Below are positions 1 through 36,994 of a stretch of DNA of 36,994 nt, one piece after another; within the stretch, counting starts at the first letter, position 1; the number at the start of each line of letters is the position of its first letter. The position numbers were made by a program, and so were the translations under genes. The stretch lies in the NCBI RefSeq assembly GCF_000482505.1, contig NZ_AXVL01000025.1, positions 13,737 through 50,730 on the forward strand, written 5' to 3'. The notes under the pieces were generated by a model. That model saw only the letters and a list, made by a program, of their open reading frames with translations. It did no database searches and was not told the origin of the DNA. This DNA comes from Leptotrichia trevisanii DSM 22070 (GTDB lineage Bacteria > Fusobacteriota > Fusobacteriia > Fusobacteriales > Leptotrichiaceae).

Positions 1-3000
1 CTTGAACTTGAATCTGTTTGTTACAGCTCCTGCATACCATCCGCTTGAATTACCCATCTTGATTTTTTCATCCTCATGAACGTAAGCCACACCGTAGGCG
101 TTACTTGTGTAGTTAATGATTCCTGCAGTATCAGTGTTGTATTCATCTCTCATACCGAACACTTTAATCTTGTTGTTTTGTTTAGATGGATTTCTCCAGT
201 CGTGTTTTAAGTATCTGAACTCTTTGTCCAGCAAGTTTCCAGTTGCATTGATTCTTTGTTGAAGGTTTCCATATTGGTGTCCCATCATTTCGTCTGTTGC
301 CTGATAGAACAGGATTGCTTCATTATTACCAATTCCATTTAATTTTTGAAACAACTTACGTTCTCTTGTATCTAAAGCCTCTACTCCATATCTTTGTTCC
401 AGTCCATCTAGGAAGTTATAAGTATCTGCACTGTTTACTGGTGTACTTTCTCGCCCTGCCCAAGCTGTATACGGTATTTTAACCATATAAATACTTGTCA
501 TTGTTCCATCATTCGGATTTAATGTAGGTGTTGCAAGCCAATTCAGCCCTCCAGAATAGATATTCCAATTTGAAACACCACTTGTCTTGATTGCATTATT
601 ATACGGCCCTAAAATTCTAGGATCTTTAATTAAAATAGACTTGCTATTTGTCATTTCAGTTGCTTCAGTACCAATAATTAAATCAGCCTCTTGAGTTAAA
701 TTTCCTAATCCATTTATTGATTTTGTATAATCTTTTCCTGATGTATTTACATACATTCCAATACTTGATGCTGATACTTCAATAGGATTTTTTGCAAATG
801 TATTTATTACTACAGGTGTCTGTTTTACCCCGTTTATTGTTACTGTCGCAGTCTGTGCTCCTGCAGGTGCGTCAATATTAGCTCCTCCAATTCCTTTACC
901 TGTTGGTGGTGTGGTAAATTTCTGTACAGTATTAGAAGGATTGTTATTTCCATTTACAGTTATATTACCATAGTTTACAACTCTTCCTCCTTTCAAGTAC
1001 ACTCCAACTGAATTTGATCCGTTAATTGTTATTGTTCCTGTGTTGTTAAGTGTTGCTCCTGTTCCAAGGTATACACCAACCACATTTGAGTAACTTCCTG
1101 ATCCTGTTGAGATATTACCTGTATTTATAGCAGTTGCTCCGTTATCCGCATAAATACCTGTTGTATTATTTCCATTTAATACTATATTACTATTATTGGT
1201 TGCTGTACTTCCTGCTCCACTTGCATACATACCTATACTATAATCACCATTTACATTTATTGTTCCATTGTTTATAACATTTCCTGTATCACTGTTCTGG
1301 TATCCTGCAGCCATACCTATTCCAAATGCGTTTGTTGCCGCATTTGAACCTCCAATTGTGATTGTACCTGTATTTGTTGCTGTACCACCACCAACTGAAT
1401 AGATACCAACATTTCCGACACCGTTTCCAAAGTCCATGTTACCTGAGTTTGTTACGGTTCCTGCAGAATAAATACCGTAGTTTCCACTACCTGTTGCACT
1501 CAAGTTTGTAGAGTTATTTACTGTTCCTGCAGCATCACTTGAATAAACATAAATATTATTTGTTCCTAATTCTACATTTGCCACTGTTGAATTAACCGTA
1601 TTACCATTTCCAGCATTTGCTAACGCAACTGATGTATCTCCTAAATTAAATGCAGTACCGCTATTCGTTATAGTTTGTCCACTTCCCACTGTGTATACAC
1701 CTACTGCTTCAGATGCTCCTGTTGCAATTGTTCCTCCTGTAAGGTTTACATTTCCTCCTTGTGAGTATACACCTACACCTTTGTTTCCTACTGTAACTGT
1801 TCCTCCTGTTACATCAGCAGCGTAACCGAACATTCCTATACCATTCTGTCCTACCGTTATATTCCCTGAATTAGATGTAGTGTAGTTTGTAGCCGTGTTT
1901 TCACCATACAGTCCTACACTATTATCACCTAAAGAGATGTTTCCTGTATTTCCGAGAACTGCTCCTGCAGTAATTGTTGCAGCTGGTTTGAACAGTACAC
2001 CCACCGAAGCTGTTCCTGTGCTTGTTATGGTTCCCGCATTTGTTACACCTTGAGTTGTTGAACCTTCAGAGTACATAGCTGTTGACTTGTTGCCCATTGT
2101 AATTGTTCCTGTATTTGTAAGGATACTGTCCCCTATTCCGTAAAGTCCTGTTGATGTATCTCCCAATGTAATAGTTCCTGTTGCATTGTTATTAATAACT
2201 CCAAATTTTGCATACATACCTGTTGAATTTGCACCACTAAGGTTGATTGCACCATTGTTATTTAACGTAACAGCCGTTCTGTTAGCTGTCAAGTTTTCCT
2301 GTGCAATTGCAGTCTGTCCTGCCTGAGTTCCAGTTATAGTATTATTATTGTTATTGTCAATTGATGAATTTGAAATTTCTAACTGGTTGTATGCATCATT
2401 TGCATTATCAAGATTAATTGACTGATTCAATTTAAGCAAACTCTTATATAGCATAAATGTCTTATAGTCACTTCCTACTATATTTGCTCCTAAAGAACTT
2501 GCTAACCCGCTACCTGCTGTATCAGACAGATTCATTGATACGTCAGAAGCTATGAACAGTCTTGAACCACTTGCCATATTAAGTGTCAACTGTCCTATTG
2601 TACCACCAAATGTATTCGCTGACCAGCTTGCTATATCAGAAGATGTAAATGGAGAATATCCACTACCTTGATAATAGAATGCTGTACCTCTTGTATTGGC
2701 ATCAGTACCTCCTGCTATGTTTGCAGTCGTTGCACCTGTGAAATTAATTCTTCCTGTTCCACCATTGTTATCTGCGTAGAATGCCAATGATTTCTGTTGT
2801 GTGTCAATTGTAGTACCATTGAACTTAACTGTACCACCTTGTGCATATGTATTGAATGCACCTCCTGTAGCTTTTATAGTACCACCAGTAATATCAACAG
2901 TACCTCCACTTTGTCCCAATGCACCAATTGATGCACTTCCGTCAACAGCTATAGTTCCTCCACCTGTATGAGTTATAGTACCGTTATTCATTGCTGCAAG

Positions 3001-5082
3001 CCCAACTGCACCATCTGTTGCACTTGAAGCCGTTCCTGTCACATCCACCTTGCCACTATTTGTTATTGTTGAATTATTAGCTATTAATGCTTTAACAGAA
3101 GCCCCTGATGCAGAAATCTTTCCTGTACTTGTAGATGTACCTGCACCATTAGCAAAAATACCTGTTGATTTATCAGCTGTTATTGTAATATCTGCTGCGG
3201 TTGTTATTGGTTTAACTGTATATATTCCTATGTTATCAGCACCACCTGTGATATTGATTTCATGTTTAGTTCCAGAACCTAGAAGATTAACTGTTCCTTG
3301 TTTTACAAACACACCAGTATTGTTTTTTCCTTCTATATTGATAGCATATTCTTTTAATTTAAATGTATTTCCTGATGTACTTTCAAAAAATATACCTGTA
3401 TTTTTAGTTCCTGATAAATCAATATTCATCACAGAAGCTCTTGTATTTGCAGGTAAATCTGTAACTCTATTATCTCCTAAATCTCTATCAAATGCAACCC
3501 CACCTTCTAAATTCATCCATTGCTTAAACACAACTCCTGTAGAAAGTGTTCCAGAAATTTTTAAAGGTTTATTAAATAATATTTCAGCAGAATTATAATC
3601 ATAACTACCTGGATAATCACTGCCTCCATTTACAATAATTCCATATTGCTTACTTCCAGTCATATTAATTGTACCATCATTTATATAAGAAAAACCAGAG
3701 TTTACAGGATTTGTAGGCTGCATAATATATGCTAATATATCACCAGTCCCTCCTAAATTTATAGTACCTGCTCTATTATGAAAATATTGTTGTATTACAT
3801 TGGAATAATTCCCATGCGTTTCATCAAGTGCAATCCATCCAATATTGTTTGATCCATTTGTTGTTATCTTACCATCATTTACAAAACCTGTGTTTCCATT
3901 TGGATGTTGATGATATTGTGAAGTATACAATACCAAATAATTTCCATTTATATTTACATTTGTTCTGTTATTAAGAACCCAAGTTGATTCTCCTCTGTCA
4001 TTATGACCATCTGTATGAAATAACCATTTTTGATAACCTGAAGTCGACGAACCTGTATAATTTATTGTTACATCTCTAATATTTAATGTGTGTCCTCCTA
4101 CATTTTTAAAAGCAGCATACTGAGTTTGATTTGTAAAATTAAAATTTTGAATTCCATGTGGCACTTGATTATGACCGGCTCCTACTACTCCAGTCATATC
4201 AACTTCCGTTGCTTTTACATCATAACTGTTTCCATTTGCAGTTACATCAATTGTACCACCAGTCATATGTTGCTGAGCAATTGGTGCTACAGATCCTCCA
4301 GATTGAATCCATTCTTCATCTCCGTTTCCTGTTGCAGGTGCATTAATTGAAGGAGGATTTACTTCGGGTGCATCTGGTGGAGTAATATTAGGTGTAACCG
4401 GCCTAAAGTTAATCGCCTGTGGCAAGTTAGGCTGTGTAGCTGAAAGTGGAGTAACTGTTGGTGCTGTAAACACTCTCGGATTGATTCCTGCACTTACCTC
4501 GAATGCTACAATTGGTTCATTTACCGGCAACGTACTTGCTATACCATAACCTGATAATCCTTGTCTATTATTTGATGATGCCAGACGAGGATTTCTATTT
4601 CTGCCAAGCAGTGAATAATTTTTACTTTCAGGTGATACATATCTTTCATAGGCATTGGTACTTCTTTCAAATATACCCTCATATGGGTACTTTTCTTCCT
4701 TATCCCCTCTACCTTTATAAGTTCCGTTCCAATTATTATTAAAGTAATTTATACCATATTGCCAGCTGCTCCAAGGTGATTTTACAACATGATCACCTTG
4801 TTCCATTAATTGTGTCAGTTCCAATGTTGTATTTTTCATTAATTTACTGTTTTCTTTTCTTGCCCTTTTAAAATCAGTACGTATTTGATTTATTGATGTA
4901 TTTATCTGATTAACTTGATTCTTGATTCCTGAACCTTCATTATCTGCAAATATATTAGCTGATGCAAAAAGCATTCCTGTCATTAAAAACATAATCAATG
5001 CAGATTCTGTGTATTTAAAATCTTTTGTTCTTTTCGCAAATGCACGCAATTCTTGCGAAATTTTCTTTAAATTATTTGTCAT
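1..5082 (-). CDS. Giant type V autotransporter, N-terminal part (C-terminal barrel cut by window edge)
   Basis: The minus-strand frame is open from the ATG at 5082 to base 1 with no stop, giving 1,694 codons. The start has a good ribosome site (AAAGGAGAG, 9 nt upstream). Residues 1-45 match the N-terminal domain of fusobacterial autotransporters (MTNNLKKISQELRAF, then a TESALIMF membrane stretch ending in a FASANIFA-type cleavage site). A Gln/Asn-rich linker and a Pro-rich stretch near residue 230 follow. The passenger to about residue 1530 is built of short NTGTIT...VGVY-type repeats expected to form a beta helix. From about 1545 the sequence becomes barrel-like (DEMMGHQYGNLQQR, later GNSSGWYAGAV). 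The expected role is surface display, probably adhesion; the ligand is unknown. It is truncated only by the window edge and shows no sign of decay. Confidence 0.93.
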   Translation of the reverse strand, partial: MTNNLKKISQELRAFAKRTKDFKYTESALIMFLMTGMLFASANIFADNEGSGIKNQVNQINTSINQIRTDFKRARKENSKLMKNTTLELTQLMEQGDHVVKSPWSSWQYGINYFNNNWNGTYKGRGDKEEKYPYEGIFERSTNAYERYVSPESKNYSLLGRNRNPRLASSNNRQGLSGYGIASTLPVNEPIVAFEVSAGINPRVFTAPTVTPLSATQPNLPQAINFRPVTPNITPPDAPEVNPPSINAPATGNGDEEWIQSGGSVAPIAQQHMTGGTIDVTANGNSYDVKATEVDMTGVVGAGHNQVPHGIQNFNFTNQTQYAAFKNVGGHTLNIRDVTINYTGSSTSGYQKWLFHTDGHNDRGESTWVLNNRTNVNINGNYLVLYTSQYHQHPNGNTGFVNDGKITTNGSNNIGWIALDETHGNYSNVIQQYFHNRAGTINLGGTGDILAYIMQPTNPVNSGFSYINDGTINMTGSKQYGIIVNGGSDYPGSYDYNSAEILFNKPLKISGTLSTGVVFKQWMNLEGGVAFDRDLGDNRVTDLPANTRASVMNIDLSGTKNTGIFFESTSGNTFKLKEYAINIEGKNNTGVFVKQGTVNLLGSGTKHEINITGGADNIGIYTVKPITTAADITITADKSTGIFANGAGTSTSTGKISASGASVKALIANNSTITNSGKVDVTGTASSATDGAVGLAAMNNGTITHTGGGTIAVDGSASIGALGQSGGTVDITGGTIKATGGAFNTYAQGGTVKFNGTTIDTQQKSLAFYADNNGGTGRINFTGATTANIAGGTDANTRGTAFYYQGSGYSPFTSSDIASWSANTFGGTIGQLTLNMASGSRLFIASDVSMNLSDTAGSGLASSLGANIVGSDYKTFMLYKSLLKLNQSINLDNANDAYNQLEISNSSIDNNNNNTITGTQAGQTAIAQENLTANRTAVTLNNNGAINLSGANSTGMYAKFGVINNNATGTITLGDTSTGLYGIGDSILTNTGTITMGNKSTAMYSEGSTTQGVTNAGTITSTGTASVGVLFKPAATITAGAVLGNTGNISLGDNSVGLYGENTATNYTTSNSGNITVGQNGIGMFGYAADVTGGTVTVGNKGVGVYSQGGNVNLTGGTIATGASEAVGVYTVGSGQTITNSGTAFNLGDTSVALANAGNGNTVNSTVANVELGTNNIYVYSSDAAGTVNNSTNLSATGSGNYGIYSAGTVTNSGNMDFGNGVGNVGIYSVGGGTATNTGTITIGGSNAATNAFGIGMAAGYQNSDTGNVINNGTINVNGDYSIGMYASGAGSTATNNSNIVLNGNNTTGIYADNGATAINTGNISTGSGSYSNVVGVYLGTGATLNNTGTITINGSNSVGVYLKGGRVVNYGNITVNGNNNPSNTVQKFTTPPTGKGIGGANIDAPAGAQTATVTINGVKQTPVVINTFAKNPIEVSASSIGMYVNTSGKDYTKSINGLGNLTQEADLIIGTEATEMTNSKSILIKDPRILGPYNNAIKTSGVSNWNIYSGGLNWLATPTLNPNDGTMTSIYMVKIPYTAWAGRESTPVNSADTYNFLDGLEQRYGVEALDTRERKLFQKLNGIGNNEAILFYQATDEMMGHQYGNLQQRINATGNLLDKEFRYLKHDWRNPSKQNNKIKVFGMRDEYNTDTAGIINYTSNAYGVAYVHEDEKIKMGNSSGWYAGAVTNRFKFK

Positions 5083-5749: not shown

Positions 5750-7492
5750 TTATCCCTCCTCAACCACAACTTCCACGTCTTTCTTCCTAAATCCCATCCC
5801 AATTTTCACAATATTTTCATACCCCTCATGTTTCAGCCCATCAGCATAATTCCTGTCATTTATCTGCTTCAACGCACTTTTAGCTGTCCTCTTCAAGTTC
5901 TTGCTATCTTTCGCCTTAGAATGTTTAAATTCAAAAATAAATGCCTTATTTTTCTTATTTCTAGGTTTTAACATCAAATCTGGCAGTCCATCTCCACTTT
6001 CACTATTAGATTTAATATAATATTCCTCATACATCACAGCAACTATTCCCATAACAAACAGATGATACGAATTTTCTTCCTTCAAATCCCTAAAACTAAC
6101 CGAATTTTTTAATAAAATCCTAATTTCATTCCTAAATTTCTCATAATCGCCCTTCATTAAATATTCTCCAAGCAGCGAGAATTTATAATGGCCTCCATAA
6201 GTTCTGTACAAAAATCTAATTTTGAAAAAATCAAATATTTCTTCGTTCGGTATTTTCAAATCATAAACATTTTTGGATACTTTTTTATCAATAGTCAAAT
6301 ATCCGCTGTGAAGGAAAAATTGCCAAATGTTCCCTCGTGCAAAATCATTCACATAATATTGATAATTTGGAGAGTCTTCCCTAATCTCAAACCCATAACT
6401 ATTTCTATTCAAGTTCAAGGCATAATCTATATCCTGAAACGTAACATAGTCATAAATTTCTTTCCTTATACTTTCATGCCCTAGCAATCTTTCAAAATCA
6501 AAGATTATATTTTCATCTGAATTTTCAAGATAATTCATAATTTCATCATTACTGGAAGTATTTATCCAATGTTCCTTTAATTCTCTAAATCTTAAAAAAT
6601 TTACTACTGACCAAGGATTATATATATTCCTGTTTCCAAATAAATATCCATTATACCATTTCTTTACCTCATTTATCTCAAAATCAAGATTATAATACTT
6701 TAATGCCTCTTCAACTTCATTTTCCAAAATTCCAAAATACTCGTTATAATCCTGCTCTAGTACAGTATGTACTTCCAAATTATTCAGCCCAGAAAAAATT
6801 CCTTCCTTAGCAATTCTCAAAATTCCAGTCATAACTGTAATTTCAACATAATCATTACCTTTCACACTCTTTTCAAAAAACTTTTTAAAGAAATTAATAA
6901 TTTCATTATAATATCCATTTACATGTGCCTTTATTATCGGTTTATCATATTCATCAATCAACAAAATTACTTTTTTTCCATAATATTCGTATAAATATCT
7001 TGATAAATCTAATAATGCTCTCTCATAATCTATTTCTTTTCTTTTTAGCCAAATATTATCAAAATCTATTAAATCACCCTTACTTAATTTATCTCGTAAA
7101 AATGTAAATTCATTATAAAGATGTCGTATTTCTCCTTTTAAACCTCTGAACCCATCTTCCCAGTTTGTTTCCTCATAATCCTTAAAACTAATAAAAATAA
7201 CTGGATTCTGTCCCTGTCTATCAAAATATTTGCTTTTAGAAATATAAAGGTTTTCAAAAAGTTTCCTATTTTCATCTTTATTTTCGATATTAAAAAAATA
7301 CTTTAACATCGACATATTAAGTGATTTTCCAAATCTACGTGGACGTGTGAACAGCATTCTTGATGCCCCGCTTTTTAAAATCTCCTCAATCAATCCAGTC
7401 TTGTCAAAATAGTAATAATCCTTTTGAATCATCGTTTCAAAATTGTCAATTCCAATTGGCAAATTTCTCTTTTCTTTCCCATTTACAATCAT
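5750..7492 (-). CDS. AAA-ATPase-like / PD-(D/E)XK nuclease family protein (copy 1)
   Basis: The 580-residue protein has the architecture of the families known as AAA-ATPase_like (N-terminal) and PDDEXK_9/DUF1703 (C-terminal). Near residue 45 it carries FTRPRRFGKS, the P-loop-like motif of the family, and further on LLIDEYDKP, the Walker B/DEYD motif. The C-terminus has GDGLPDL and, 12 residues on, IFEFK, the PD-(D/E)XK catalytic pair. The reading frame could begin two codons earlier at 7498, but the GGGGG ribosome site is correctly spaced only for the ATG at 7492. It is monocistronic with its own consensus promoter and a terminator. A close paralogue lies at 34723-36492. The biological role of the family is not established; a DNA-directed nuclease role is inferred. 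Confidence 0.88.
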   Translation of the reverse strand: MIVNGKEKRNLPIGIDNFETMIQKDYYYFDKTGLIEEILKSGASRMLFTRPRRFGKSLNMSMLKYFFNIENKDENRKLFENLYISKSKYFDRQGQNPVIFISFKDYEETNWEDGFRGLKGEIRHLYNEFTFLRDKLSKGDLIDFDNIWLKRKEIDYERALLDLSRYLYEYYGKKVILLIDEYDKPIIKAHVNGYYNEIINFFKKFFEKSVKGNDYVEITVMTGILRIAKEGIFSGLNNLEVHTVLEQDYNEYFGILENEVEEALKYYNLDFEINEVKKWYNGYLFGNRNIYNPWSVVNFLRFRELKEHWINTSSNDEIMNYLENSDENIIFDFERLLGHESIRKEIYDYVTFQDIDYALNLNRNSYGFEIREDSPNYQYYVNDFARGNIWQFFLHSGYLTIDKKVSKNVYDLKIPNEEIFDFFKIRFLYRTYGGHYKFSLLGEYLMKGDYEKFRNEIRILLKNSVSFRDLKEENSYHLFVMGIVAVMYEEYYIKSNSESGDGLPDLMLKPRNKKNKAFIFEFKHSKAKDSKNLKRTAKSALKQINDRNYADGLKHEGYENIVKIGMGFRKKDVEVVVEEG

Positions 7493-7593
7493 TTTCATTC
7501 CCCCAATTCATTTCAAAATATTCTCAAGCCTCTATAAAACAAGATTAATCTAAAACTAGATTTTGAACTCAGTTTTAAAATTGCTTTACCATT

Positions 7594-16365: not shown

Positions 16366-17070
16366 ATGATTGAAAAATATTTGACAAATAAATGTATTTT
16401 AATTGTTGATGATGAACAGGAAATTTTGGATATGATTGTATCAATTTTTGCTGATTATGGGTATAAAAATATACAGACTGCAAAAAATGTGAAAGATACT
16501 ATGAAACGTGTTGCAGAAAAACAGCCTGATTTAGCGATACTGGATGTTATGCTTCCAGACGGGAACGGTTTTGACTTACTGGAAAAGTTGAGAAAAGATA
16601 GTAATTATCCAATATTATTTCTTACAGCACGTGGAGAGGATGAGGATAAATTTAAGGGCTTTGGATTGGGGGCGGACGACTATATTGTGAAACCTTTTTT
16701 ACCAAAAGAGCTTTTATTTAGAATTACTGCTATTTTACGGCGAACTTACAAAGAAGAAAGTCCGATTGTAAATTTGAGCGGTTGTCAAATTGACTTTTCC
16801 TGTGGAGAAATTATAAAAGATAATAAAAATATATCATTAACTGCAAAGGAATATGAATTATTACAAACTCTTTACCGAAACGCTGGACGTATCGTAACCA
16901 TTGATACACTGTGTGAAGCTGTATGGGGTGAAAACGCCTATGTTTATACAAATTCTCTGATGACACACATAAGACGCATTAGAGAAAAAATTGAAATCAA
17001 CCCTTCCCATCCGGTATCACTAATAACAATGAAAGGGTTAGGTTATAAACTAATTGTGGAGGAAAAATAA
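16366..17070 (+). CDS. OmpR-family response regulator
   Basis: The 234-residue protein has a receiver domain with the acidic pair DD at 15-16, phospho-acceptor Asp60 (LAILDVMLPDG), Thr87 and Lys109 (VKPF), followed by a winged-helix DNA-binding domain (SLTAKEYELL, recognition segment YTNSLMTHIRRIREKI, GLGYKL). It is full length and all key residues are present. The ribosome site GGAAGGAG is ideal. The gene is co-transcribed with the histidine kinase, whose ATG is one base past the stop. It should be phosphorylated by that kinase and bind direct-repeat DNA; TTTAC repeats lie in its own promoter region. With its kinase it is the only plus-strand unit of the window. Confidence 0.95.
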   Translation: MIEKYLTNKCILIVDDEQEILDMIVSIFADYGYKNIQTAKNVKDTMKRVAEKQPDLAILDVMLPDGNGFDLLEKLRKDSNYPILFLTARGEDEDKFKGFGLGADDYIVKPFLPKELLFRITAILRRTYKEESPIVNLSGCQIDFSCGEIIKDNKNISLTAKEYELLQTLYRNAGRIVTIDTLCEAVWGENAYVYTNSLMTHIRRIREKIEINPSHPVSLITMKGLGYKLIVEEK

Positions 17071-17071
17071 T

Positions 17072-18460
17072 ATGAAAAGCATACTAAAACTCATACGCCG
17101 TTTTATAATAACATTAATATTAAGTTTTATTTTACTTCTATTCTTAAATATTTTTCTATACGGACTATGGATTGTTAAATATGTGTCAAAGGAGCCTCCT
17201 ATGAACTATACTTTTAAAGTAGCAACTATGTTAAAATTTGAAAATGGCAAATACACTTTGCCTGACAAAATAACTGCTGACTTAAAAAAACAAAATATAT
17301 GGGCAATCTTAATTGACAATGATTCAAAAAAAGTTATATGGCAAACTGACAATTTACCTGATGATATTCCAAAAGAATACTCTATATCTGATATTGCCAT
17401 ATTTTCACATGCCTATATAAAAAATTATCCTGTTTTCACCTCTAAAGTTGAAAATAATTTACTTGTACTGGGCTATCCTAAAAACAGTTATTGGAAATAC
17501 CCAATAGCCAGCTGGAAATATGGAATCATTAAAAATATTCCAAAATTTTTACTTGTACTTCTGTGTCTAAACATAATTTTCATATTTTTAATATATTTTA
17601 TTTCCAACTCTAAACTTTTAAGTTCTGTAAATCCAATAATAAAAGGTATACAAAATTTACCTAAAGATATGCCTGTATATGTTAAAGAAAAAGGGGTTTT
17701 GTCAGAACTCGCAAAAAGTATAAATAAAACTTCTGAAATCTTGCAAAATCAAAGAGAACAACTGCGAAATAAAGATACCGCAAGAGCCAACTGGATTGCA
17801 GGAGTTTCCCACGATATTCGCACCCCTTTATCAATGATAACGGGATACACAAGTCAGTTAAAGGCATCTTCAAATTTATCAGATGACACAAATAAAAAAC
17901 TTTCTGTAATTTTAAAACAGAGTGAACGCATAAAAAACTTAATAAACGATTTAAACCTTGCTTCCAAACTGGAATACAATATGCAACCTTTTGAACAAAA
18001 AAGAGAAAATGTGATAGCACTCGTTAGACAAGTTCTCGTTGATTTTTTGAATATGGATATTGATGAAAAATTTCCAATAGAATGGAAAACTGACAGCGAA
18101 TTTACATCCTGTTTTGTCAATGTTGACAGCAACTTAATAAAGCGTGCCTTGTCGAATCTAATTCAAAACTGTATCAATCATAACGAAAACGGATGTACAA
18201 TCTATGTTTCAATAAAAGAAGATAAAGATAACTGTGTAATCTGTGTTGAAGATAACGGAGCAGGAGTTTCTGATGAACAACTGAAAAAACTCAATAATAC
18301 TCCACATTATATGGTTTGTAATACAGATATTACTGAACAGCGACATGGATTAGGACTTCTCATTGTAAAACAAATTATTGATGTCCATAGTGGTAAAATT
18401 ATAGTAAAACACAGTCAATACGGAGGTTTTAAAGTCATTTTACACATTCCAAAATTATAA
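17072..18460 (+). CDS. Membrane sensor histidine kinase, partner of the response regulator
   Basis: With the ATG at 17072 the product has 462 residues. A GGAGG site 9 nt upstream supports this start over an earlier TTG at 17054. Membrane helices lie at about 9-35 and 156-178 and enclose an extracytoplasmic region of some 120 residues without a recognised domain. The dimerisation domain has WIAGVSHDIRTPLS with His247, and the catalytic domain carries the N box NLIQNCINHN and the DNGAGVSD and HGLGLLIV motifs. The signal is unknown. No ABC transporter is adjacent, unlike the bacitracin or lantibiotic sensing systems of Firmicutes that this kinase otherwise resembles. Confidence 0.92.
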   Translation: MKSILKLIRRFIITLILSFILLLFLNIFLYGLWIVKYVSKEPPMNYTFKVATMLKFENGKYTLPDKITADLKKQNIWAILIDNDSKKVIWQTDNLPDDIPKEYSISDIAIFSHAYIKNYPVFTSKVENNLLVLGYPKNSYWKYPIASWKYGIIKNIPKFLLVLLCLNIIFIFLIYFISNSKLLSSVNPIIKGIQNLPKDMPVYVKEKGVLSELAKSINKTSEILQNQREQLRNKDTARANWIAGVSHDIRTPLSMITGYTSQLKASSNLSDDTNKKLSVILKQSERIKNLINDLNLASKLEYNMQPFEQKRENVIALVRQVLVDFLNMDIDEKFPIEWKTDSEFTSCFVNVDSNLIKRALSNLIQNCINHNENGCTIYVSIKEDKDNCVICVEDNGAGVSDEQLKKLNNTPHYMVCNTDITEQRHGLGLLIVKQIIDVHSGKIIVKHSQYGGFKVILHIPKL

Positions 18461-18543: not shown

Positions 18544-18590
18544 AAAAAAATTGTCTAATTGTTTCAATAAAGAAATAACTAGACAATTTA
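18544..18590. terminator. Bidirectional terminator between the kinase and the OmpA-like gene
   Basis: AAATTGTCTA (18548-18557) and TAGACAATTT (18580-18589) form a perfect 10-bp stem. On the minus strand it is followed by seven T, and on the plus strand by an AT-rich tract, so it can serve both converging units. Confidence 0.8.
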
Positions 18591-18621: not shown

Positions 18622-19149
18622 CTATTTTGTAGCTTTGAATTCGATTCTTCTGTTTTCAAATCTTCCTTGTTCAGTATCATTTGGAGCGATCGGTTCAGAT
18701 TCTCCTCTTGATTCTACACCTATGATTCTTGCAGGATCTAATCCAAATTCTATCAATTTATCTCTAACTGCTACTGCCCTTCTCATACCTAAAGCCATAT
18801 TATAAGCATCAGAACCTTTAGAATCTGTATGTCCTATAATTGTTAATTTGAAGTCATGTTGTTCAGCATAATCTTTAACGTTTCTCAATAATTCAAAGTA
18901 TTGAGGTTTAACTACTGATTTATCAAAATCAAAGTTTAATCTTCCAGAATCGAATGCCCAAACTTGTGGTTCTGGAGCTGGTTCTGGTTCCGGTGCTGGA
19001 ATTGGTTCTGGAGCTGGCTCTTCTAACTCAAGAGCGTTAATTCTAATTGTATTTTCTCTCATTTGAGTAGTTGTCAGCCTTCTTGCCATTAGTGGTGAAG
19101 CAACTAACAACCCTAGTGCAATTATTGTTGTTGTTGTTCGTCTAACCAT
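18622..19149 (-). CDS. OmpA-family peptidoglycan-associated envelope protein
   Basis: The 175-residue protein has an N-terminal signal-like helix (TTTTIIALGLLVASPLMA), a Pro-Glu-Ala repeat linker (PAPEP units, about residues 45-62) and a C-terminal OmpA/MotB domain: FDFDKSVVKPQYFELL, IIGHTDSKGSDAYN, with Asp and Arg (NRRIEF) for diaminopimelate binding. It has no beta-barrel, so it is more like Pal or the OmpA C-domain than true OmpA. It probably tethers the outer membrane to the cell wall. Its ATG overlaps the end of the lipoprotein gene by 28 bases and has its own GAGAGG site, so translation is coupled. It is the last gene of the FadA-like operon. Confidence 0.88.
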   Translation of the reverse strand: MVRRTTTTIIALGLLVASPLMARRLTTTQMRENTIRINALELEEPAPEPIPAPEPEPAPEPQVWAFDSGRLNFDFDKSVVKPQYFELLRNVKDYAEQHDFKLTIIGHTDSKGSDAYNMALGMRRAVAVRDKLIEFGLDPARIIGVESRGESEPIAPNDTEQGRFENRRIEFKATK

Positions 19150-19319
19150 GTTTCAGCCTCTCTTTCTAACGATCTATATTTTTGGCTACCTGGATTTGGT
19201 TTGTTTTCTTTTAAATAATCTTCTATATGGTTCAATCTAGTTGTGTTATAATCTACCAATTTTGCGTTTGTACAAGACAAAGCTCCTAATCCTACGAATA
19301 ATAATGCTAACTTTTTCAT
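19122..19319 (-). CDS. Small outer-envelope lipoprotein
   Basis: The 65-residue product has a signal peptide with lipobox GALSC and a short mature part rich in charged residues and ending in four Gln (REAETWLDEQQQQ). The frame is open up to 19343, but the AGAAAGGA site is about 10 nt from the ATG at 19319, which begins a standard MKKLALLF signal sequence. I do not recognise a family. It sits in an operon with FadA-like and OmpA-like genes and overlaps the latter. A role in assembly or anchoring of the surface complex is inferred. Confidence 0.75.
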   Translation of the reverse strand: MKKLALLFVGLGALSCTNAKLVDYNTTRLNHIEDYLKENKPNPGSQKYRSLEREAETWLDEQQQQ

Positions 19320-19373
19320 ATTTTTCATTTCCTTTCTAAACATCCAATTTTATTTTTTTCTCTCTCTTTACTC

Positions 19374-19862
19374 TTAGTTCATTCTATTTTGAATAGTATC
19401 TAATCTTTGTTCCATTTGATCTAACATTTCGTTTGTTTTATGGAATTTTTCAATGTTACTGTTGATTTGATCCACTCTTTTTCTAATTCTTTGAATTTCT
19501 ACGTCCATCATTTTACTTTCAGACATATTTTTTCTTTGAGCTCTTAAATCTCTTGTTCTTGTTTTTCTTTGTTGAGCCGCTTCTTTTGCTTTTTCCGCTC
19601 TTTCTTTAGCTTGTGCCCTAGCAGCTTCTATTTTTTGACGTGCCTCTTGACTTACACCTGTAGGTTCAGCTACTTCTTCAACTGGAACTACCACTTCTTC
19701 TTCTACAACACCTTTTGCTGCTTCTTTAGCTTGTTGGGCTTGTCTTTGCTTAGCTACTTTAACTAATCTTTGCACAGCGGCATCAGTATTTGTTGGAGCT
19801 GAAAATGATACTTGACTCATCGCTAACACCATTACAGCTACTAATCCTAATATTTTTTTCAT
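19374..19862 (-). CDS. Secreted Ala/Glu/Lys-rich coiled-coil protein
   Basis: The product from the ATG at 19862 has 162 residues: a signal peptide ending FSA, an acidic valine-rich stretch (GVVEEEVVVPVEE), then about 60 residues of alternating charge (ARAQAKERAEKAKEAAQQRK) and a C-terminal helix ending in EQRLDTIQNRMN. A longer frame to 19910 exists, but AGAAAGGA is spaced for the shorter start. The helices should form long coiled coils in the periplasm or on the surface. It has no recognised domain. Its neighbours suggest envelope scaffolding or support of adhesins. Confidence 0.75.
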   Translation of the reverse strand: MKKILGLVAVMVLAMSQVSFSAPTNTDAAVQRLVKVAKQRQAQQAKEAAKGVVEEEVVVPVEEVAEPTGVSQEARQKIEAARAQAKERAEKAKEAAQQRKTRTRDLRAQRKNMSESKMMDVEIQRIRKRVDQINSNIEKFHKTNEMLDQMEQRLDTIQNRMN

Positions 19863-19937
19863 TGATTTTCCTTTCTTGAATAATATTTTATAAAAAATAT
19901 CGTCCTTCAAAATAACTAAATTTTTAATTCTTTATTT

Positions 19938-20324
19938 TTATTTAGTTGTTCTTCTAGATTTTTTTGGAGCGTTTTTAACGCCATCTCTTCCAAGAACGCT
20001 GTCAAATTCTCCTAATTCTTTTTCTTCTCTTTGTACACTTCTTACTACTCTTTCATAGAAGTCTACTCTGTCTGCTGCTTTAGCTGCGTTGTATTCTAAT
20101 TTTTCAATTGGAGATTTTCTTTTAACTACTTCTTTTTCTTCAATAACACCATCTTCATCAATTGTAACTAATTTTTCAGTTGTCATTTTTGGTTCTTTAG
20201 GTGTTTTTAAACTTTTGTAGTAATCATCTCTGGCTTGTTTTAATATTTCTTGTGGAGAAGCTGCCATCATAGGCACAGATAATACTGCTACTATCCCACA
20301 TAACAATAATTTTTTTGCTTTCAT
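19938..20324 (-). CDS. Secreted small helical protein of the FadA-like operon
   Basis: The 128-residue protein starts with a clear signal peptide (MKAKKLLLCGIVAVLSVPMMAA). The mature part is highly charged, with TIDEDGVIEEKEVVKRK in the middle, a helical VDFYERVVRSVQREEKELGEF segment and a basic tail (KKSRRTTK). I do not recognise a family. It is second in the operon, 23 nt after the FadA-like gene. Size and helical content resemble the small proteins accompanying fusobacterial adhesins, but the function is unknown. Confidence 0.72.
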   Translation of the reverse strand: MKAKKLLLCGIVAVLSVPMMAASPQEILKQARDDYYKSLKTPKEPKMTTEKLVTIDEDGVIEEKEVVKRKSPIEKLEYNAAKAADRVDFYERVVRSVQREEKELGEFDSVLGRDGVKNAPKKSRRTTK

Positions 20325-20347
20325 CTTTTAATTACCATTCCTTTCAA

Positions 20348-20734
20348 TTAATTCATTACTGATAATAATGTATCCAATTCTGCAATTTTTTGTTCCTTTG
20401 CTGCAATAGATTTGTTTATGTTTTTATAAAGAGTTTCGGAATTATTCAGTATTTTTTTATATTTGTCCCTGTGCCATCTAACTTCTGAATCTACTCTTAA
20501 TTTTTCTAATAATTTTTCTCTGTCAGCCTGTTTAGATTTTAAATCTTCAACTTCAGCTTCCAATTGTGCTTTTTGTTGTCTATAGCTTTCTTTTTGTGCT
20601 TCTTCTTTTCTCATTAATTCATTGAATTGGTTTTCAATTGAATTTAAGCTGCTTTCCAAGCTCTTTTTTTCAGCAGAGAAACCTATTGACGAAACCATCA
20701 TTATTCCAACTAAAAAGAATATTGTCTTTTTCAT
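20348..20734 (-). CDS. FadA-family adhesin
   Basis: The 128-residue protein has a signal peptide (ending GFSA) and a mature chain of about 107 residues predicted as a helical hairpin. It follows the pattern of Fusobacterium nucleatum FadA: SLESSLNSIENQFNEL, a Glu/Gln-rich first helix, RWHRDKYKKIL at the place of FadA RFYKSQYQDL, and a second helix ending LDTLLSVMN. FadA forms filaments and binds host cadherins; whether this homologue does so is unknown. It opens a five-gene envelope operon, with a strong AGGAGG site and a promoter with phased repeats upstream. Confidence 0.85.
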   Translation of the reverse strand: MKKTIFFLVGIMMVSSIGFSAEKKSLESSLNSIENQFNELMRKEEAQKESYRQQKAQLEAEVEDLKSKQADREKLLEKLRVDSEVRWHRDKYKKILNNSETLYKNINKSIAAKEQKIAELDTLLSVMN

Positions 20735-31337: not shown

Positions 31338-31850
31338 TTATACCTCGCTTTCTAAAATATCCAATATTTTAAAAATATTACTTCCAATACTTACATTTTC
31401 AGGTTCTTCAATCCTTAAATATTTTTCAATTGATTCTTTCATTATAAATTTTTCAGCAATTTTAACCTTTTCCTTTTTATTCTTAGATTTATTATCAATT
31501 TTCAAAATCATTTCAATATTTTCATTATTTTTTATCAATTTATATTTATTTTTTTGAATAAATTTCTTTATATCTTCTAAAAATATTCTATCTTTCTCTT
31601 CTCTTTTAAATTTATCCAAATCAATCACATAAATGATTTCATAATCAGAGTTTCTATTTTGATTTTTAAATTTATTTATTTTTTGTTTAATCTGTTTTTC
31701 TTTTTTATTATAATTATATTTCCCATCAAGAATAATCCACTCTAATTTAATTTCTTTCTTCAATTTTTCAGATTCCACATAATACTTGACAATTTTATCA
31801 ACATATATTTTATCTGAATTTCCCTCAACCAAAAATAGCCACAGTTTCAT
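31338..31850 (-). CDS. TOPRIM-like small protein paired with an AAA ATPase
   Basis: The 170-residue, Lys-rich protein starts KLWLFLVEGNSDKIYVDKI, with Glu9 in the EGxSD motif typical of TOPRIM domains, and continues to YEIIYVIDLDKFKRE with Asp77 and Asp79, the DxD pair that binds metal. This fits the nuclease-like TOPRIM domains (DUF4435/RloB-like) encoded next to AAA15-type ATPases in PARIS, RloAB and related phage-defence pairs. The match is by motif; exact family membership is not certain. It lies 9 nt after the ATPase gene and is likely its effector. Confidence 0.65.
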   Translation of the reverse strand: MKLWLFLVEGNSDKIYVDKIVKYYVESEKLKKEIKLEWIILDGKYNYNKKEKQIKQKINKFKNQNRNSDYEIIYVIDLDKFKREEKDRIFLEDIKKFIQKNKYKLIKNNENIEMILKIDNKSKNKKEKVKIAEKFIMKESIEKYLRIEEPENVSIGSNIFKILDILESEV

Positions 31851-31859
31851 AACTCCCCT

Positions 31860-33164
31860 TTAATTCTTCTCTTCAAATATATTAAATATTTCAAAAAAAT
31901 CATAATACTCAATATTATATGGCATATTTGGTAACATCCCCTCCAAATACTGCTTTCTTGGAGAATAATTTCCATTTTTTATCCAAGGCTTTATTTCCTG
32001 ATATTCAGTCATAAAATCTATCGAATTTTTATATTTTTTTAAAGTATCCAAAATACTTGTATTATGAGCTGTAAACGTAAACTGTCCTTTCCCATTTTCA
32101 GCAAAAAACTCAATTAACCTATTCAAATATAAATCATGAATACTCATATCTATTTCATCAACAAACACAATTCCACCATTATTAACTGTATCTAAAACAT
32201 CAAATAATCTAAACAGTGACTTCATTCCCATACTTTCATATTCAAAATTTATCTTGTAATCCTTGTAGTTGAAAACATATTCAATTTCATAATAATTTTC
32301 ATCAAAATCTTTCTTTTCAAACTCTATTTTATTTAGTTCAGGATTAAATAATTTCAAAAATCTTTCTTTTCTTTCTAGACTTTTATTCAAATTTTCAATT
32401 TCTTCTTTTGTTTTAGATAAGATATTTCTCTTTTTAGCTTCTTGATTTACATAATCAATATATATTTTATCAAGCCAATTTTGATTTTCAAAATTGATAT
32501 AAACCATTTTATAATGACTATCTTCCAAATGAGTAAAGACATTAATTTTTGAATACAATACATATAAATATATAAATCCAAATTTTTCAGATTTTAATTC
32601 ATTTGTTTCATATTTTTCAACATCATCAATAACCAGTTTTATTATACTTTTTCTATCCAGCAAATTCATTGATAACTTTTCTATTTCATCTAAATTTTTA
32701 AAATAATTTGACTTCTCTTTGTTTATCTTTCCATTTTCTATAATTAATGTTTTTAATATCTCTTTTCTATCTAGCTTTTTTTTATTTATTATTTCTTTTG
32801 TAATAATAATTTTCCCATTTTCTATTTTCAAACTTATTGAATGTTCAAAAATATGTTTTTTATTATTTTTATCAATAATCAAAAATTCAGAAGACAAATA
32901 ACATTCTTTAAGTTTTTTATTTATTATTTCATTTAACAAACTACTTTTTAAAATTAAATAGTCACTGTCTAATACAATATTTCTTAAAATTTCAATTCCT
33001 TTTATAACAGCAGTTTTCCCAATTCCATTCCTTCCAAAAATTCCTTTAACATTATAATTTTCCCTATTAAAATTGCGTATATCCTGCTTATAAAAACTAA
33101 TTTCAATCGTTTTTTCAATATTTTTTATTCCATTTAATCTAAATTCTAAAAGATAAAATTCCAT
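31860..33164 (-). CDS. AAA15/RloA-like ABC-type ATPase of a putative defence pair
   Basis: The 434-residue protein is an SMC/ABC-like ATPase: Walker A GRNGIGKT at 44-51, a Lys/Glu/Asn-rich inserted middle part, an ABC-signature-like YESMGMKSLF near 309-318, Walker B GIVFVDEID with Asp336-Glu337, and a TAHNTSIL switch with His367. Such proteins pair with TOPRIM effectors in anti-phage systems (RloA, AriA of PARIS, AbiL). The C-terminal end carries an IKPWIKNGNYSPRKQYLEGMLP stretch common in the family. It is the first gene of the unit and has a promoter embedded in inverted repeats. Anti-phage function is inference. Confidence 0.75.
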   Translation of the reverse strand: MEFYLLEFRLNGIKNIEKTIEISFYKQDIRNFNRENYNVKGIFGRNGIGKTAVIKGIEILRNIVLDSDYLILKSSLLNEIINKKLKECYLSSEFLIIDKNNKKHIFEHSISLKIENGKIIITKEIINKKKLDRKEILKTLIIENGKINKEKSNYFKNLDEIEKLSMNLLDRKSIIKLVIDDVEKYETNELKSEKFGFIYLYVLYSKINVFTHLEDSHYKMVYINFENQNWLDKIYIDYVNQEAKKRNILSKTKEEIENLNKSLERKERFLKLFNPELNKIEFEKKDFDENYYEIEYVFNYKDYKINFEYESMGMKSLFRLFDVLDTVNNGGIVFVDEIDMSIHDLYLNRLIEFFAENGKGQFTFTAHNTSILDTLKKYKNSIDFMTEYQEIKPWIKNGNYSPRKQYLEGMLPNMPYNIEYYDFFEIFNIFEEKN

Positions 33165-34722: not shown

Positions 34723-36492
34723 TTATTCTTCCTCAACCACAACTTCCACATCCTTTTTCCTGAATCCCATCCCAATTTTCACAATTTCCTTATAACCTTC
34801 ATATTTTAACCCTGCAAAATAATTCCTGTCATTTATTTGCTTCAAGGCACTTTTTGCAGTTCTCTTCAAATTTCTGCTGTCTTTTGCCCTTGAATATTTA
34901 AATTCAAATATAAATGCTTTTTTATTTTTATCTTTTGGCTTTAATACCAAATCAGGAATTCCATCTCCACTTTCCACATTCGACTTTACAAAATAATTTT
35001 CTGACATTATGGAAACTAGTCCAATTACAAACAAATGATAAGAATTTTCTTCCTTCAAGTCCCTAAAACTTATCGCATTTTTTAAAAGTTCCCTTATTTC
35101 CAATCTAAATTTTTCATAATTTCCATTAATCAAATGCTCTTCAAGTCCATAAAATCTGTAATGTCCCCGATACGTTCTATACAAAAATCTTATTCTGAAA
35201 AAATCAAACAGTTCCTCATTTGGAATTTTCAAGTCGTAAACATTTCTTCCAAGTTTTTTTTCAACGGTTAAATATCCGCTATGCAAGAAAAATTGCCAAA
35301 TATTCGCATGCCCGAAGTCATTCATAAAATAATCCCGTTCAATTTCATAATTTTTCCCATTTTCCCTAACTTCAAATCCGTAATTATTTTTATTCAAGTT
35401 CAAGGCATAATCTATATCCTGAAACGTCACAAAATCATAAATTTCCTTCCTTATGCTCTTATGGCTAAGCAACTCCTCCAGCTCAAAAATAATTTTCTCG
35501 TCTGAATTTTCCAAATAGTTCATAATTTCATCATTACTTGAAGTATTTACCCAATGTTCTTCAATCTTCTTGTCATCTAAAAAATTAATCGTAGACCAAG
35601 GGTTGTAAACTTCCTTTTTCCCAAAACAATAACCATTATACCACTTTTTGACTTCTTCCAGTTCGAAGTTAAGCTCGTAATATTTTAATGCCTCTTCAAC
35701 TTCACTTTCCAAAATTCCAAAATGTTCAGTATAATTATCACTCAAAACAGTATTCACTTTAAGATTGTTGAGTCCAGAAAAAATCCCTTCCTTAGCAATC
35801 CTTAAAATTCCTGTAATTACCGTGATTTCTGCATAATCATTTCCTTTTACTGCCTTTTCAAAGAAAGTCTTGAAAAAATTTATCACATCATTATAATACC
35901 CATTAGCATGTGCTTTTATTATTGGCTTATCGTATTCATCGATTAATAAAACAACTTTCTTGCCATAGTATTCAAATAAATATCTTGATAAGTTTGACAA
36001 GGCACGGCTATAATTACCTTCCTTTTTTTTTAACCATATATTATCAAAATCCATTAAATCGCTTTTTTCTAGTTTTTCCCGCAAAAATCTGAATTCATTG
36101 TACAAGGATTTTATTTCCTCTTTTATACTGTTAAAACCATTTTCCCAGTTTGTTTCCTCAAAATCCTTAAAACTGATAAAAATAACCGGATTCTGCCCCT
36201 GTCTATCAAAATATTCACTTTTAGAAATTTCTAAATTTTCAAAAAGTTTTCTATTTTCTTCCTTATTCTTCACATCAAAAAAATACTTTAACATCGACAT
36301 ATTAAGCGATTTTCCAAATCGACGTGGTCTTGTAAACAGAATTCTTGTCGTCCCACTTTCCAGAATTTCTTCAATCAGCCCAGTTTTGTCAAAATAATAG
36401 TAATTATTTTGTATCATCACTTCAAAATTGTCAATTCCAACTGGCAAATTTTTCTTTTTTTCCACTTTCTCATTTTTTCCCTTTTTAATCAT
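34723..36492 (-). CDS. AAA-ATPase-like / PD-(D/E)XK nuclease family protein (copy 2)
   Basis: The 589-residue protein aligns end to end with the product of 5750-7492; by eye about three quarters of residues agree. It keeps FTRPRRFGKS, LLIDEYDKP, GDGIPDL and IFEFK, so both the ATPase and the PD-(D/E)XK sites look intact. The N-terminus (MIKKGKNEKVEKKK) and the stretch around residue 310 diverge most. It is a single-gene unit with a near-consensus promoter and its own terminator, like copy 1. Both copies lie next to an autotransporter gene. The function of the family is unknown. Confidence 0.88.
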   Translation of the reverse strand: MIKKGKNEKVEKKKNLPVGIDNFEVMIQNNYYYFDKTGLIEEILESGTTRILFTRPRRFGKSLNMSMLKYFFDVKNKEENRKLFENLEISKSEYFDRQGQNPVIFISFKDFEETNWENGFNSIKEEIKSLYNEFRFLREKLEKSDLMDFDNIWLKKKEGNYSRALSNLSRYLFEYYGKKVVLLIDEYDKPIIKAHANGYYNDVINFFKTFFEKAVKGNDYAEITVITGILRIAKEGIFSGLNNLKVNTVLSDNYTEHFGILESEVEEALKYYELNFELEEVKKWYNGYCFGKKEVYNPWSTINFLDDKKIEEHWVNTSSNDEIMNYLENSDEKIIFELEELLSHKSIRKEIYDFVTFQDIDYALNLNKNNYGFEVRENGKNYEIERDYFMNDFGHANIWQFFLHSGYLTVEKKLGRNVYDLKIPNEELFDFFRIRFLYRTYRGHYRFYGLEEHLINGNYEKFRLEIRELLKNAISFRDLKEENSYHLFVIGLVSIMSENYFVKSNVESGDGIPDLVLKPKDKNKKAFIFEFKYSRAKDSRNLKRTAKSALKQINDRNYFAGLKYEGYKEIVKIGMGFRKKDVEVVVEEE

Positions 36493-36705: not shown

Positions 36706-36994
36706 CTAGTAAATAGCTCTAAATCCAATACCTGCCCTTACATTCTTACCTTTGGTATCATATCCTCCATTTACTGTTACTCCAAATCTTGTGTTGTCAA
36801 CTCCAATGTTCAAGTCAAACTTACCGTTTCCTTTTCTGTCATCCTTTTCCCCTCTGATTCCGAACCAGTCAGCACTTGTGTATCTTACTCTTCCTCTGTT
36901 GTTCACATCTCCAACTTTTCCTAGTTCATTCTCATAGGCTGCTGTAAGTCCCACTGTCAAGTTTGTTCTTACTGCTAACGGTTGCACATATTTG
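36706..36994 (-). CDS. Autotransporter beta-barrel C-terminus (N-terminal part beyond window)
   Basis: The frame is open from the right edge to a TAG at 36706, giving 95 residues. They alternate as outer-membrane strands (NLTVGLTAAYENELG, KFDLNIGVDNTRFGVTVNGGYD) and end in GIGFRAIY, with the terminal aromatic expected by the BAM complex. It is the C-terminal end of a translocator barrel from a second giant autotransporter transcribed toward the left. An in-frame GTG at 36987 is not a real start. Confidence 0.85.
   Translation of the reverse strand, partial: KYVQPLAVRTNLTVGLTAAYENELGKVGDVNNRGRVRYTSADWFGIRGEKDDRKGNGKFDLNIGVDNTRFGVTVNGGYDTKGKNVRAGIGFRAIY

What the first reader, a model, noticed from the sequence alone, without database searches (positions are those of the whole stretch)
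18622..20734. FadA-like adhesin operon with three unassigned exported proteins
Five exported proteins are encoded in one operon: FadA-like, two charged helical proteins, a tiny lipoprotein and an OmpA-like cell-wall anchor. The combination suggests a multi-part surface fibre with a periplasmic and a wall-bound part. The three middle proteins match no family I recognise.
Basis: partly seen in the sequence, partly recalled or inferred. Interest (0 to 1): 0.5.

Follow-up and report, generated by a model that had tools for sequence, protein, structure and literature searches.

The report
Probable helper genes for surface adhesins
Five small exported proteins in an oral Leptotrichia form a gene set that is kept together in part of the Fusobacteriota and, in related bacteria, usually sits right beside genes for giant surface proteins of a family that includes known adhesins, so it is probably a shared helper for those proteins rather than a fibre of its own.

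Summary
The five-gene operon is real (minus strand, 20734 to 18622). Its order is conserved in 13 of 13 Leptotrichia genomes and in related genera. Gene 1 is a FadA-family member. Gene 3 just passes the curated FAD-I family cut-off, so it is not quite unassigned. Genes 2 and 4 match no Pfam or NCBIfam family. Gene 4 is a lipoprotein whose end overlaps gene 5 (an OmpA-type wall binder) in 25 of 25 loci measured; its conserved C-terminal motif also holds gene 5's ribosome-binding site. Outside Leptotrichia and a Sebaldella-like genus, a type V autotransporter is the next gene after 13 of 15 cassettes. In the four Leptotrichia genomes read around the locus the cassette stands alone, while the window's genome has at least 15 autotransporters of that family. 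Cassette-linked autotransporters are not a separate lineage. Best reading: a periplasmic accessory module of fusobacterial autotransporters, a five-gene relative of radABCD and, by architecture, of the fadA3 operons of F. nucleatum, acting in trans in Leptotrichia. The physical mechanism (wall tether, holder or feedback sensor) is inferred. The 'surface fibre' reading is less likely but not excluded. New variant of a known kind.

The parts
20348..20734 (-). gene 1: FadA-family protein (128 aa, signal peptide, helical)
   Evidence: Pfam FadA 62.4 bits, cut-off 28.5; profile of its family matches solved FadA 3etw, E 4e-8; separate branch from six other FadA-family proteins, support 100/100
19938..20324 (-). 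gene 2 (P2): charged exported protein with invariant core YxRVVRSVxREE; position of RapB
   Evidence: no Pfam or NCBIfam match; alignment A1 of 18; two predicted helices, mean pLDDT 66.7; weak, composition-biased match to RapB, inconclusive
19374..19862 (-). gene 3 (P3): FAD-I-family exported protein with a conserved, charged C-terminal part
   Evidence: NCBIfam NF041845 35.9 bits, cut-off 35; alignment A2 of 18
19122..19319 (-). gene 4 (P4): 65-aa lipoprotein; its LEREAE codons hold the ribosome-binding site of gene 5
   Evidence: lipobox LSC|TN; invariant C16, R28, E33, Y35, L36, L51, E52, E54, A55 in 18 sequences; GAG in 19 of 19 loci measured at E54 against 22 of 104 other Glu codons
18622..19149 (-). 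gene 5 (P5): signal peptide, conserved LTTTQMRENTIRINALE segment, Pro/Glu linker, OmpA-type peptidoglycan-binding domain
   Evidence: Pfam OmpA 71.9 bits, cut-off 27.2; model block pLDDT 89-95 over residues 81-175; invariant T108, D109 and R124 in 17 sequences
19122..19149 (-). 28-nt overlap of genes 4 and 5, with a CAA repeat read as Gln in P4 and Thr in P5
   Evidence: overlap of 4-49 nt, always 1 mod 3, in 25 of 25 loci measured (one further complete locus, L029, was not measured)
18544..18589 (-). hairpin with U run after gene 5, probable terminator, bidirectional by sequence
   Evidence: fold z = -4.0; inverted repeat found once, 0 expected
1..5082 (-). start of a large autotransporter of the same family as those beside cassettes elsewhere (runs off the window); candidate client, not co-transcribed
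   Evidence: NCBIfam NF033175 162.9 bits, cut-off 55; no Pfam match in this truncated piece
36706..36994 (-). C-terminal end of another autotransporter, by sequence likeness only
   Evidence: ends YDTKGKNVRAGIGFRAIY, close to the ends of the linked autotransporters; no family match for this short piece

Best explanation
The operon is an accessory cassette of the giant fusobacterial type Va autotransporters, uncoupled from any autotransporter gene in Leptotrichia, where one copy would act in trans on the autotransporter set. Shown: five exported proteins, conserved order, conserved genes 4/5 overlap, direct linkage to and co-occurrence with autotransporters of the NF033175 family. Inferred: gene 5 grips peptidoglycan through its OmpA domain; the gene 4 lipoprotein sits in the outer membrane; the helical proteins of genes 1 to 3 bridge or form a periplasmic scaffold around the autotransporter, helping to hold, stabilise or monitor it; the stretch just after gene 5's signal peptide (LTTTQMRENTIRINALE) is the likely docking site for a partner; the overlap and the embedded ribosome-binding site keep genes 4 and 5 made together.
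For: An autotransporter is the next gene after 13 of 15 cassettes outside Leptotrichia and the Sebaldella-like genus g9 (G081 4/5, G084 3/3, G039 2/2, G066 1/2, G017, G023, G085 1/1 each), and all 13 have an NF033175 match over the cut-off. In 4 of the g9 loci fetched a large autotransporter-like ORF directly precedes the set (three of these sets are complete, L110 has genes 1 to 3 only, and the ORFs were judged by size and C-terminal end, not run through a family library). Full-length gene 5 is in 23 of 98 genomes, all among the 36 that carry NF033175 autotransporters; by genus 8 of 8 lie within 11 of 29 (P = 3.8e-5). The window's genome has at least 15 such autotransporters at E <= 1e-10 and one cassette. 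Linked autotransporters are not a lineage of their own: 9 label changes against a shuffled mean of 10.1. Published F. nucleatum operons agree: rapA-rapB-fad-I-radD (passages of PMC7023056); fadA3a and fadA3b in operons with type 5 autotransporters (passages of PMC11005410); an 'OmpA family' gene 9 nt before autotransporter FNP_2361 and an 'outer membrane protein' gene 15 nt before FNP_2283, worked out from printed coordinates (table passage of PMC1924603).
Against: No physical interaction is shown. In Leptotrichia no autotransporter adjoins the cassette in the 4 of 13 genomes whose surroundings I read (window, L111, L112, L144); the other nine were seen only with 1.5 kb around gene 2. Of the 36 autotransporter-bearing genomes 13 have no full-length gene 5, including G026-G029 with 7 to 19 autotransporters each, so the cassette is not needed for this family in general. 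In F. nucleatum single rapA or rapB mutants showed no significant change in coaggregation, and the fad-I mutant had more radD transcript and more coaggregation, not less (passages of PMC7023056). One of five G081 cassettes and one of two G066 cassettes have no adjacent autotransporter.
Confidence: 0.55

Rival explanations
1. Self-standing surface fibre: FadA-like subunits polymerise on the surface, with genes 2 to 4 as minor subunits and gene 5 as wall anchor.
For: Gene 1 is a FadA-family protein; mature genes 1 to 3 are 37-44% charged residues; gene 5 is a wall binder by family.
Against: The same set adjoins autotransporters in other genera and full-length gene 5 was found only in autotransporter-bearing genera. 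The cassette FadA-like proteins form a branch apart from the two FadA-family genes that the same genome also carries on contig C72. Nothing in the sequence shows surface exposure of genes 1 to 3.
Confidence: 0.15
2. General outer membrane to peptidoglycan tether, with no special tie to autotransporters: the lipoprotein and the OmpA-type protein hold the membrane to the wall, the helical proteins brace them.
For: Location beside housekeeping genes (PTS IIA, miaA, obg-type GTPase) without an adjacent autotransporter in the Leptotrichia read; gene 5 has an OmpA-type domain with T108, D109 and R124 invariant.
Against: 75 of 98 genomes of the phylum lack full-length gene 5 at E <= 1e-60 (some are incomplete), whereas a general tether should be more widespread; linkage to autotransporters.
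Confidence: 0.15
3. Feedback sensor: the periplasmic proteins report autotransporter load and lower its transcription.
For: In F. nucleatum loss of fad-I, of the family that gene 3 marginally matches, raised radD transcript 3.49- and 5.95-fold in the two subspecies; in subspecies polymorphum loss of rapA or rapB raised it too, 2.28- and 3.26-fold (passages of PMC7023056).
Against: Indirect and in another genus; no protein with an evident signalling part is in the cassette; the neighbouring two-component system is absent beside the cassette in L. hongkongensis (L144).
Confidence: 0.12

Closest known systems
radABCD operon of F. nucleatum (rapA/fadA2, rapB, fad-I, radD)
   Same: FadA-like gene first, small gene second, FAD-I-family gene third, next to a type Va autotransporter; a RadD-type operon in genome G039 gives significant profile matches for genes 1 and 3.
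   Different: radABCD as described has four genes, no gene 4 lipoprotein and no OmpA-type gene, and its RapB and FAD-I are predicted lipoproteins (passages). The FadA-like protein of the G039 RadD-type operon lies outside the cassette branch. In the window no autotransporter is attached.
fadA3a/fadA3b autotransporter operons of F. nucleatum
   Same: A FadA paralogue in an operon with a type 5 autotransporter (passages of PMC11005410); an 'OmpA family' gene and an 'outer membrane protein' gene stand just before two F. nucleatum polymorphum autotransporters (table passage of PMC1924603; that these are fadA3 operons is my inference).
   Different: No named F. nucleatum genome was returned here, so gene-by-gene identity is untested; whether these operons hold genes 2, 3 and 4 I did not see in print.
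FadA adhesin
   Same: Pfam FadA family; profile match to the solved adhesin 3etw.
   Different: Paralogous branch; first gene of an operon; adhesion not shown.
OmpA/Pal-type peptidoglycan-binding proteins
   Same: C-terminal OmpA domain; T108, D109 and R124 invariant.
   Different: 175 aa with a plain signal peptide, no lipobox and no room for a beta-barrel; a conserved cassette-type segment after the signal peptide.

Membership tests
FadA family (gene 1) | Pfam PF09403 above its gathering score | tested here: met
   62.4 bits, cut-off 28.5
FadA family (gene 1) | adhesion to host cells or filament formation | not testable with these tools
   needs experiment
radABCD operon | FadA-like gene and FAD-I-family gene in first and third place | tested here: met
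   FAD-I match marginal, 35.9 against 35 bits
radABCD operon | second gene homologous to RapB | tested here: inconclusive
   15.4 bits with bias 15.0 against RapB of G039, E 4.7e-6 in a set of five sequences
radABCD operon | RadD autotransporter as last gene | tested here: not met
   no autotransporter follows in the window; the linked autotransporter of L094 scores 164.8 bits on the RadD model, cut-off 3500
fadA3 autotransporter operon | sequence identity of gene 1 with FadA3 | not tested
   no FadA3 sequence was at hand; the named-genome scan returned one Leptotrichia only
fadA3 autotransporter operon | autotransporter in the operon | tested here: not met
   not met in the window; an autotransporter is the next gene in 13 of 15 relatives
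OmpA-type peptidoglycan binder (gene 5) | PF00691 above cut-off | tested here: met
   71.9 bits, cut-off 27.2
OmpA-type peptidoglycan binder (gene 5) | Asp and Arg that bind diaminopimelate (roles recalled, from no call) | tested here: met
   D109 and R124 invariant in 17 sequences; binding itself not tested
bacterial lipoprotein (gene 4) | lipobox with invariant Cys | tested here: met
   C16 invariant in 18 sequences; processing not tested

The most novel reading that the evidence does not exclude
A single five-protein periplasmic platform serves, in trans, an entire set of 15 or more paralogous giant autotransporters in one cell: a shared accessory complex for type V secretion, a pathway usually thought to need only general envelope factors.
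Probability: 0.28. Interest if true: 0.7.

Novelty: new variant of a known kind. Interest (0 to 1): 0.45.

Why it matters
RadD and its relatives are important adhesins of oral fusobacteria, and the small genes beside them are still largely uncharacterised. A five-gene version that exists both joined to and freed from autotransporters gives a natural experiment: Leptotrichia should show whether these proteins help autotransporters in trans. It also shows that part of the striking conservation in the tiny lipoprotein (its LE[RK]EA motif) may be explained by the ribosome-binding site of the next gene, a warning for anyone reading it as a binding motif.

Tried and rejected
Gene 2 fold: the model is weak (mean pLDDT 66.7, pTM 0.29) and Foldseek found no PDB match; nothing was concluded. 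Influenza hemagglutinin hits of the gene 1 profile were dismissed as coiled-coil likeness. The promoter scan was at chance level (12 found, 11.3 expected) and was not used. A dedicated autotransporter lineage for the cassette was tested and not supported (51 N-terminal rows, picked by me from a match list that the tool cut, so not all autotransporters; 10 of the 13 cassette-linked ones are in it). Its first run failed on empty rows and was repeated with the start rule changed.

Rows left out of counts. One search listed 54 gene 2 matches; 30 became loci (L004-L033). Of these, three (L027, L028, L033) have only a weak gene-2-like ORF and one (L024) is cut by a contig end; the other 26, the window included, hold all five genes, 24 in the window's order and two (L022, L023) with genes 2 and 3 exchanged. 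In L014 gene 1 is cut by the contig end and in L020 gene 3 is split. For autotransporter linkage: 'next gene' means a gap of 12 to 547 nt; G085 (L014) counts although its gene 1 is cut; G086 is too fragmented to judge; a G085 contig with an OmpA-type gene some way before a gene 1 start (L172) is not counted as a cassette. The autotransporters after the cassettes in L105 and L107 are split into two ORFs; they are counted as linked and left unmended. In genus g9, L113 (G089, genes 1 to 3) ends too near the contig end to judge, L148 (G087) has gene-3-like ORFs before autotransporters but no cassette, and two further g9 loci (G088 C39 and C160) were not read around.

Full report
What is there. Five minus-strand ORFs lie between 20734 and 18622, with gaps of 23, 75 and 54 nt and a final overlap of 28 nt. 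They are a FadA-family protein, P2 (no family), P3 (NCBIfam FAD-I family, 35.9 bits against a cut-off of 35), a 65-aa lipoprotein P4 and an OmpA-type wall binder P5. All evolve under purifying selection among Leptotrichia: dN/dS 0.08 to 0.52 over 20 comparisons. A stable hairpin with a U run follows P5. The window lies in Leptotrichia: genome G071, of the same genus, has a contig of the length of L. hongkongensis JMUB5056, and the named scan returned that record.

Conservation. A search of 98 Fusobacteriota genomes with P2 gave 54 matches, of which 30 became loci; 26 of the 30 contain all five genes, 24 in the window's order and two with genes 2 and 3 exchanged. All 13 Leptotrichia genomes have the set. 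The profile of the lipoprotein finds strong matches (E <= 1e-20) only in genomes with the cassette; one of them, in G081, is a lipoprotein gene standing alone before an autotransporter. The strongest gene 1 hits come from cassettes as far as I checked, with many weaker FadA paralogues elsewhere.

The genes 4/5 overlap. In 25 of 25 loci measured, P4 and P5 overlap by 4 to 49 nt, always in the same relative frame. The most conserved C-terminal motif of P4, LE[RK]EA, is encoded by the purine-rich stretch that forms P5's ribosome-binding site. The Glu codon in it is GAG in 19 of 19 loci measured, against 22 of 104 other Glu codons of the same genes (Fisher P = 2.5e-11; the sequences are related, so P is indicative). 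In most Leptotrichia the overlap includes a CAA repeat that gives P4 a Gln-rich tail and P5 a Thr-rich start; its length varies by whole units, so both frames survive.

Link to autotransporters. Outside Leptotrichia and the Sebaldella-like genus g9, 13 of 15 cassettes have a large autotransporter as the next gene, after gaps of 12 to 547 nt (G085 from coordinates). All 13 have a match over the cut-off to NF033175, the 'autotransporter-associated N-terminal domain'; two were run through Pfam and both carry the autotransporter beta-domain. In four g9 loci an autotransporter-like ORF lies directly before the set (L108, L109, L110, L150); L110 has genes 1 to 3 only, and these ORFs were not run through a family library. 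In the window's genome NF033175 finds at least 15 autotransporter starts at E <= 1e-10; one lies in the window, 13.5 kb downstream of the cassette on the same strand (window 5082). In G067 the first 70 codons of a FadA-like gene stand directly before an autotransporter start (L169), which looks like the stump of a lost cassette.

Co-occurrence. Full-length P5 (E <= 1e-60) is in 23 of 98 genomes and NF033175 autotransporters in 36; all 23 are among the 36. By genus, 8 P5 genera all fall within 11 autotransporter genera of 29 (hypergeometric P = 3.8e-5). Against a strict need: 13 autotransporter-bearing genomes have no full-length P5; G089 among them holds a partial set (L113). Genomes G026-G029 carry 7 to 19 such autotransporters without it; in the two loci read there a FadA-like gene stands without the other four (L165, L166).

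Is the cassette dedicated to one autotransporter? I built a tree of 51 autotransporter N-termini, 10 of them next to a cassette and one next to a P4 gene alone. The linked label needs 9 changes against a shuffled mean of 10.1, and 120 of 500 shuffles are as low. Linked and unlinked autotransporters of one genome are near relatives. This fits a helper that can serve many clients, and fits one cassette for a large set in Leptotrichia. It is not proof of action in trans; the tree rests on about 130 residues and has weak deep forks.

Relation to known operons. In F. nucleatum, rapA-rapB-fad-I precede radD. RapA is a FadA-family member; single rapA and rapB mutants show no significant change in coaggregation; the fad-I mutants have more radD transcript and more coaggregation, and in subspecies polymorphum the rapA and rapB mutants also have more radD transcript (abstract and passages of PMC7023056). 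The operon is called radABCD in passages of PMC12186487. Passages of PMC11005410 state that fadA3a and fadA3b lie in paralogous operons with type 5 autotransporters. A table passage of PMC1924603 lists an 'OmpA family' gene ending 9 nt before one autotransporter and an 'outer membrane protein' gene ending 15 nt before another. So the general kind is known. What I did not find described is the five-gene composition, the genes 4/5 overlap with its embedded ribosome-binding site, and the free-standing form; searches made: open-access text only, seen as listings and passages. Three papers I asked for by id, which I recall as earlier analyses of fadA3 and of FadA/RadD evolution, were not held, so this absence is weak.

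A RadD-type operon in genome G039 let me compare the two kinds inside one species. Gene 1 and gene 3 profiles match its RapA (40.5 bits) and FAD-I (23.1 bits), while gene 2 matches its RapB only weakly and with biased composition. The 3,509-aa ORF after it was taken as RadD by position and not run against the RadD model. That operon also encodes a PPIC-type peptidyl-prolyl isomerase, a hint that such gene sets deal with folding. The tree of FadA-like proteins separates 15 cassette members from 6 others (five further FadA-family proteins and this RapA) with support 100/100, with some long branches.

A remnant in Leptotrichia. All 13 Leptotrichia genomes carry a second full-length P5-like protein. 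The one in the window's genome (G000 C6:58407-58934) is solitary, and in the tree it groups with the P5 of the autotransporter-linked cassette of G066 (100/99, with a long-branch caution). Leptotrichia may therefore once have had a linked cassette as well and kept only its OmpA-type gene. The solitary status was read in the window's genome only.

Mechanism. Shown: export signals, a lipoprotein box, a wall-binding domain with invariant residues at the binding positions, genomic association. Inferred: a periplasmic scaffold at the outer membrane, wall-anchored by P5, that holds or monitors autotransporters. The mutant data from F. nucleatum argue against an essential secretion factor, at least for single radABCD genes, and leave a stabilising or feedback role.

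Noticed in passing
window 16366-18460 (+): A response regulator and histidine kinase pair lies between the cassette and the P-type ATPase gene here and in G070 (L111) but not in L. hongkongensis (L144), so it was gained or lost at this spot.
   Followed up: partly
window 31338-33164 (-): An AAA ATPase matching the PADLOC AbiLi model (105 bits) with a 170-aa neighbour without a match: possible anti-phage pair.
   Followed up: partly
window 5750-7498 and 34723-36492 (-): Two similar proteins of 582 and 589 aa, not matched in PADLOC; by recall they look like AAA-ATPase/PD-(D/E)XK nuclease fusions.
   Followed up: no
L146:13516-14163 (genome G039): PPIC-type peptidyl-prolyl isomerase without an evident signal peptide inside a RadD-type operon, between rapB and fad-I.
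   Followed up: partly
L169:573-1241 (genome G067): A 70-codon 5' stump of a cassette-type FadA-like gene directly before an autotransporter start, as if the rest of a cassette had been deleted.
   Followed up: no
L098:8279-8518 (genome G081): The gene 4 lipoprotein alone, without the other four genes, directly before an autotransporter.
   Followed up: no
L033:1168-1791 (G071) and weak gene 2 matches in the other 12 Leptotrichia: Each of the 13 Leptotrichia genomes also has a weak match to the N-terminal part of gene 2 in a longer open frame (208-231 aa) elsewhere in the genome; the one fetched has no cassette around it.
   Followed up: no
L020:1948-2420 (genome G084): Gene 3 is split into two ORFs in one of three copies.
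   Followed up: no
G000 C72:29125-29921 (L001, L151): Two further FadA-family genes in tandem after an enolase-like gene; in G066 two FadA-like genes after a similar enolase-like gene stand directly before the linked cassette.
   Followed up: partly
window 1-5082 and the stretch before it (L173): Three large autotransporter genes in a row on the minus strand at the left end of this contig.
   Followed up: partly
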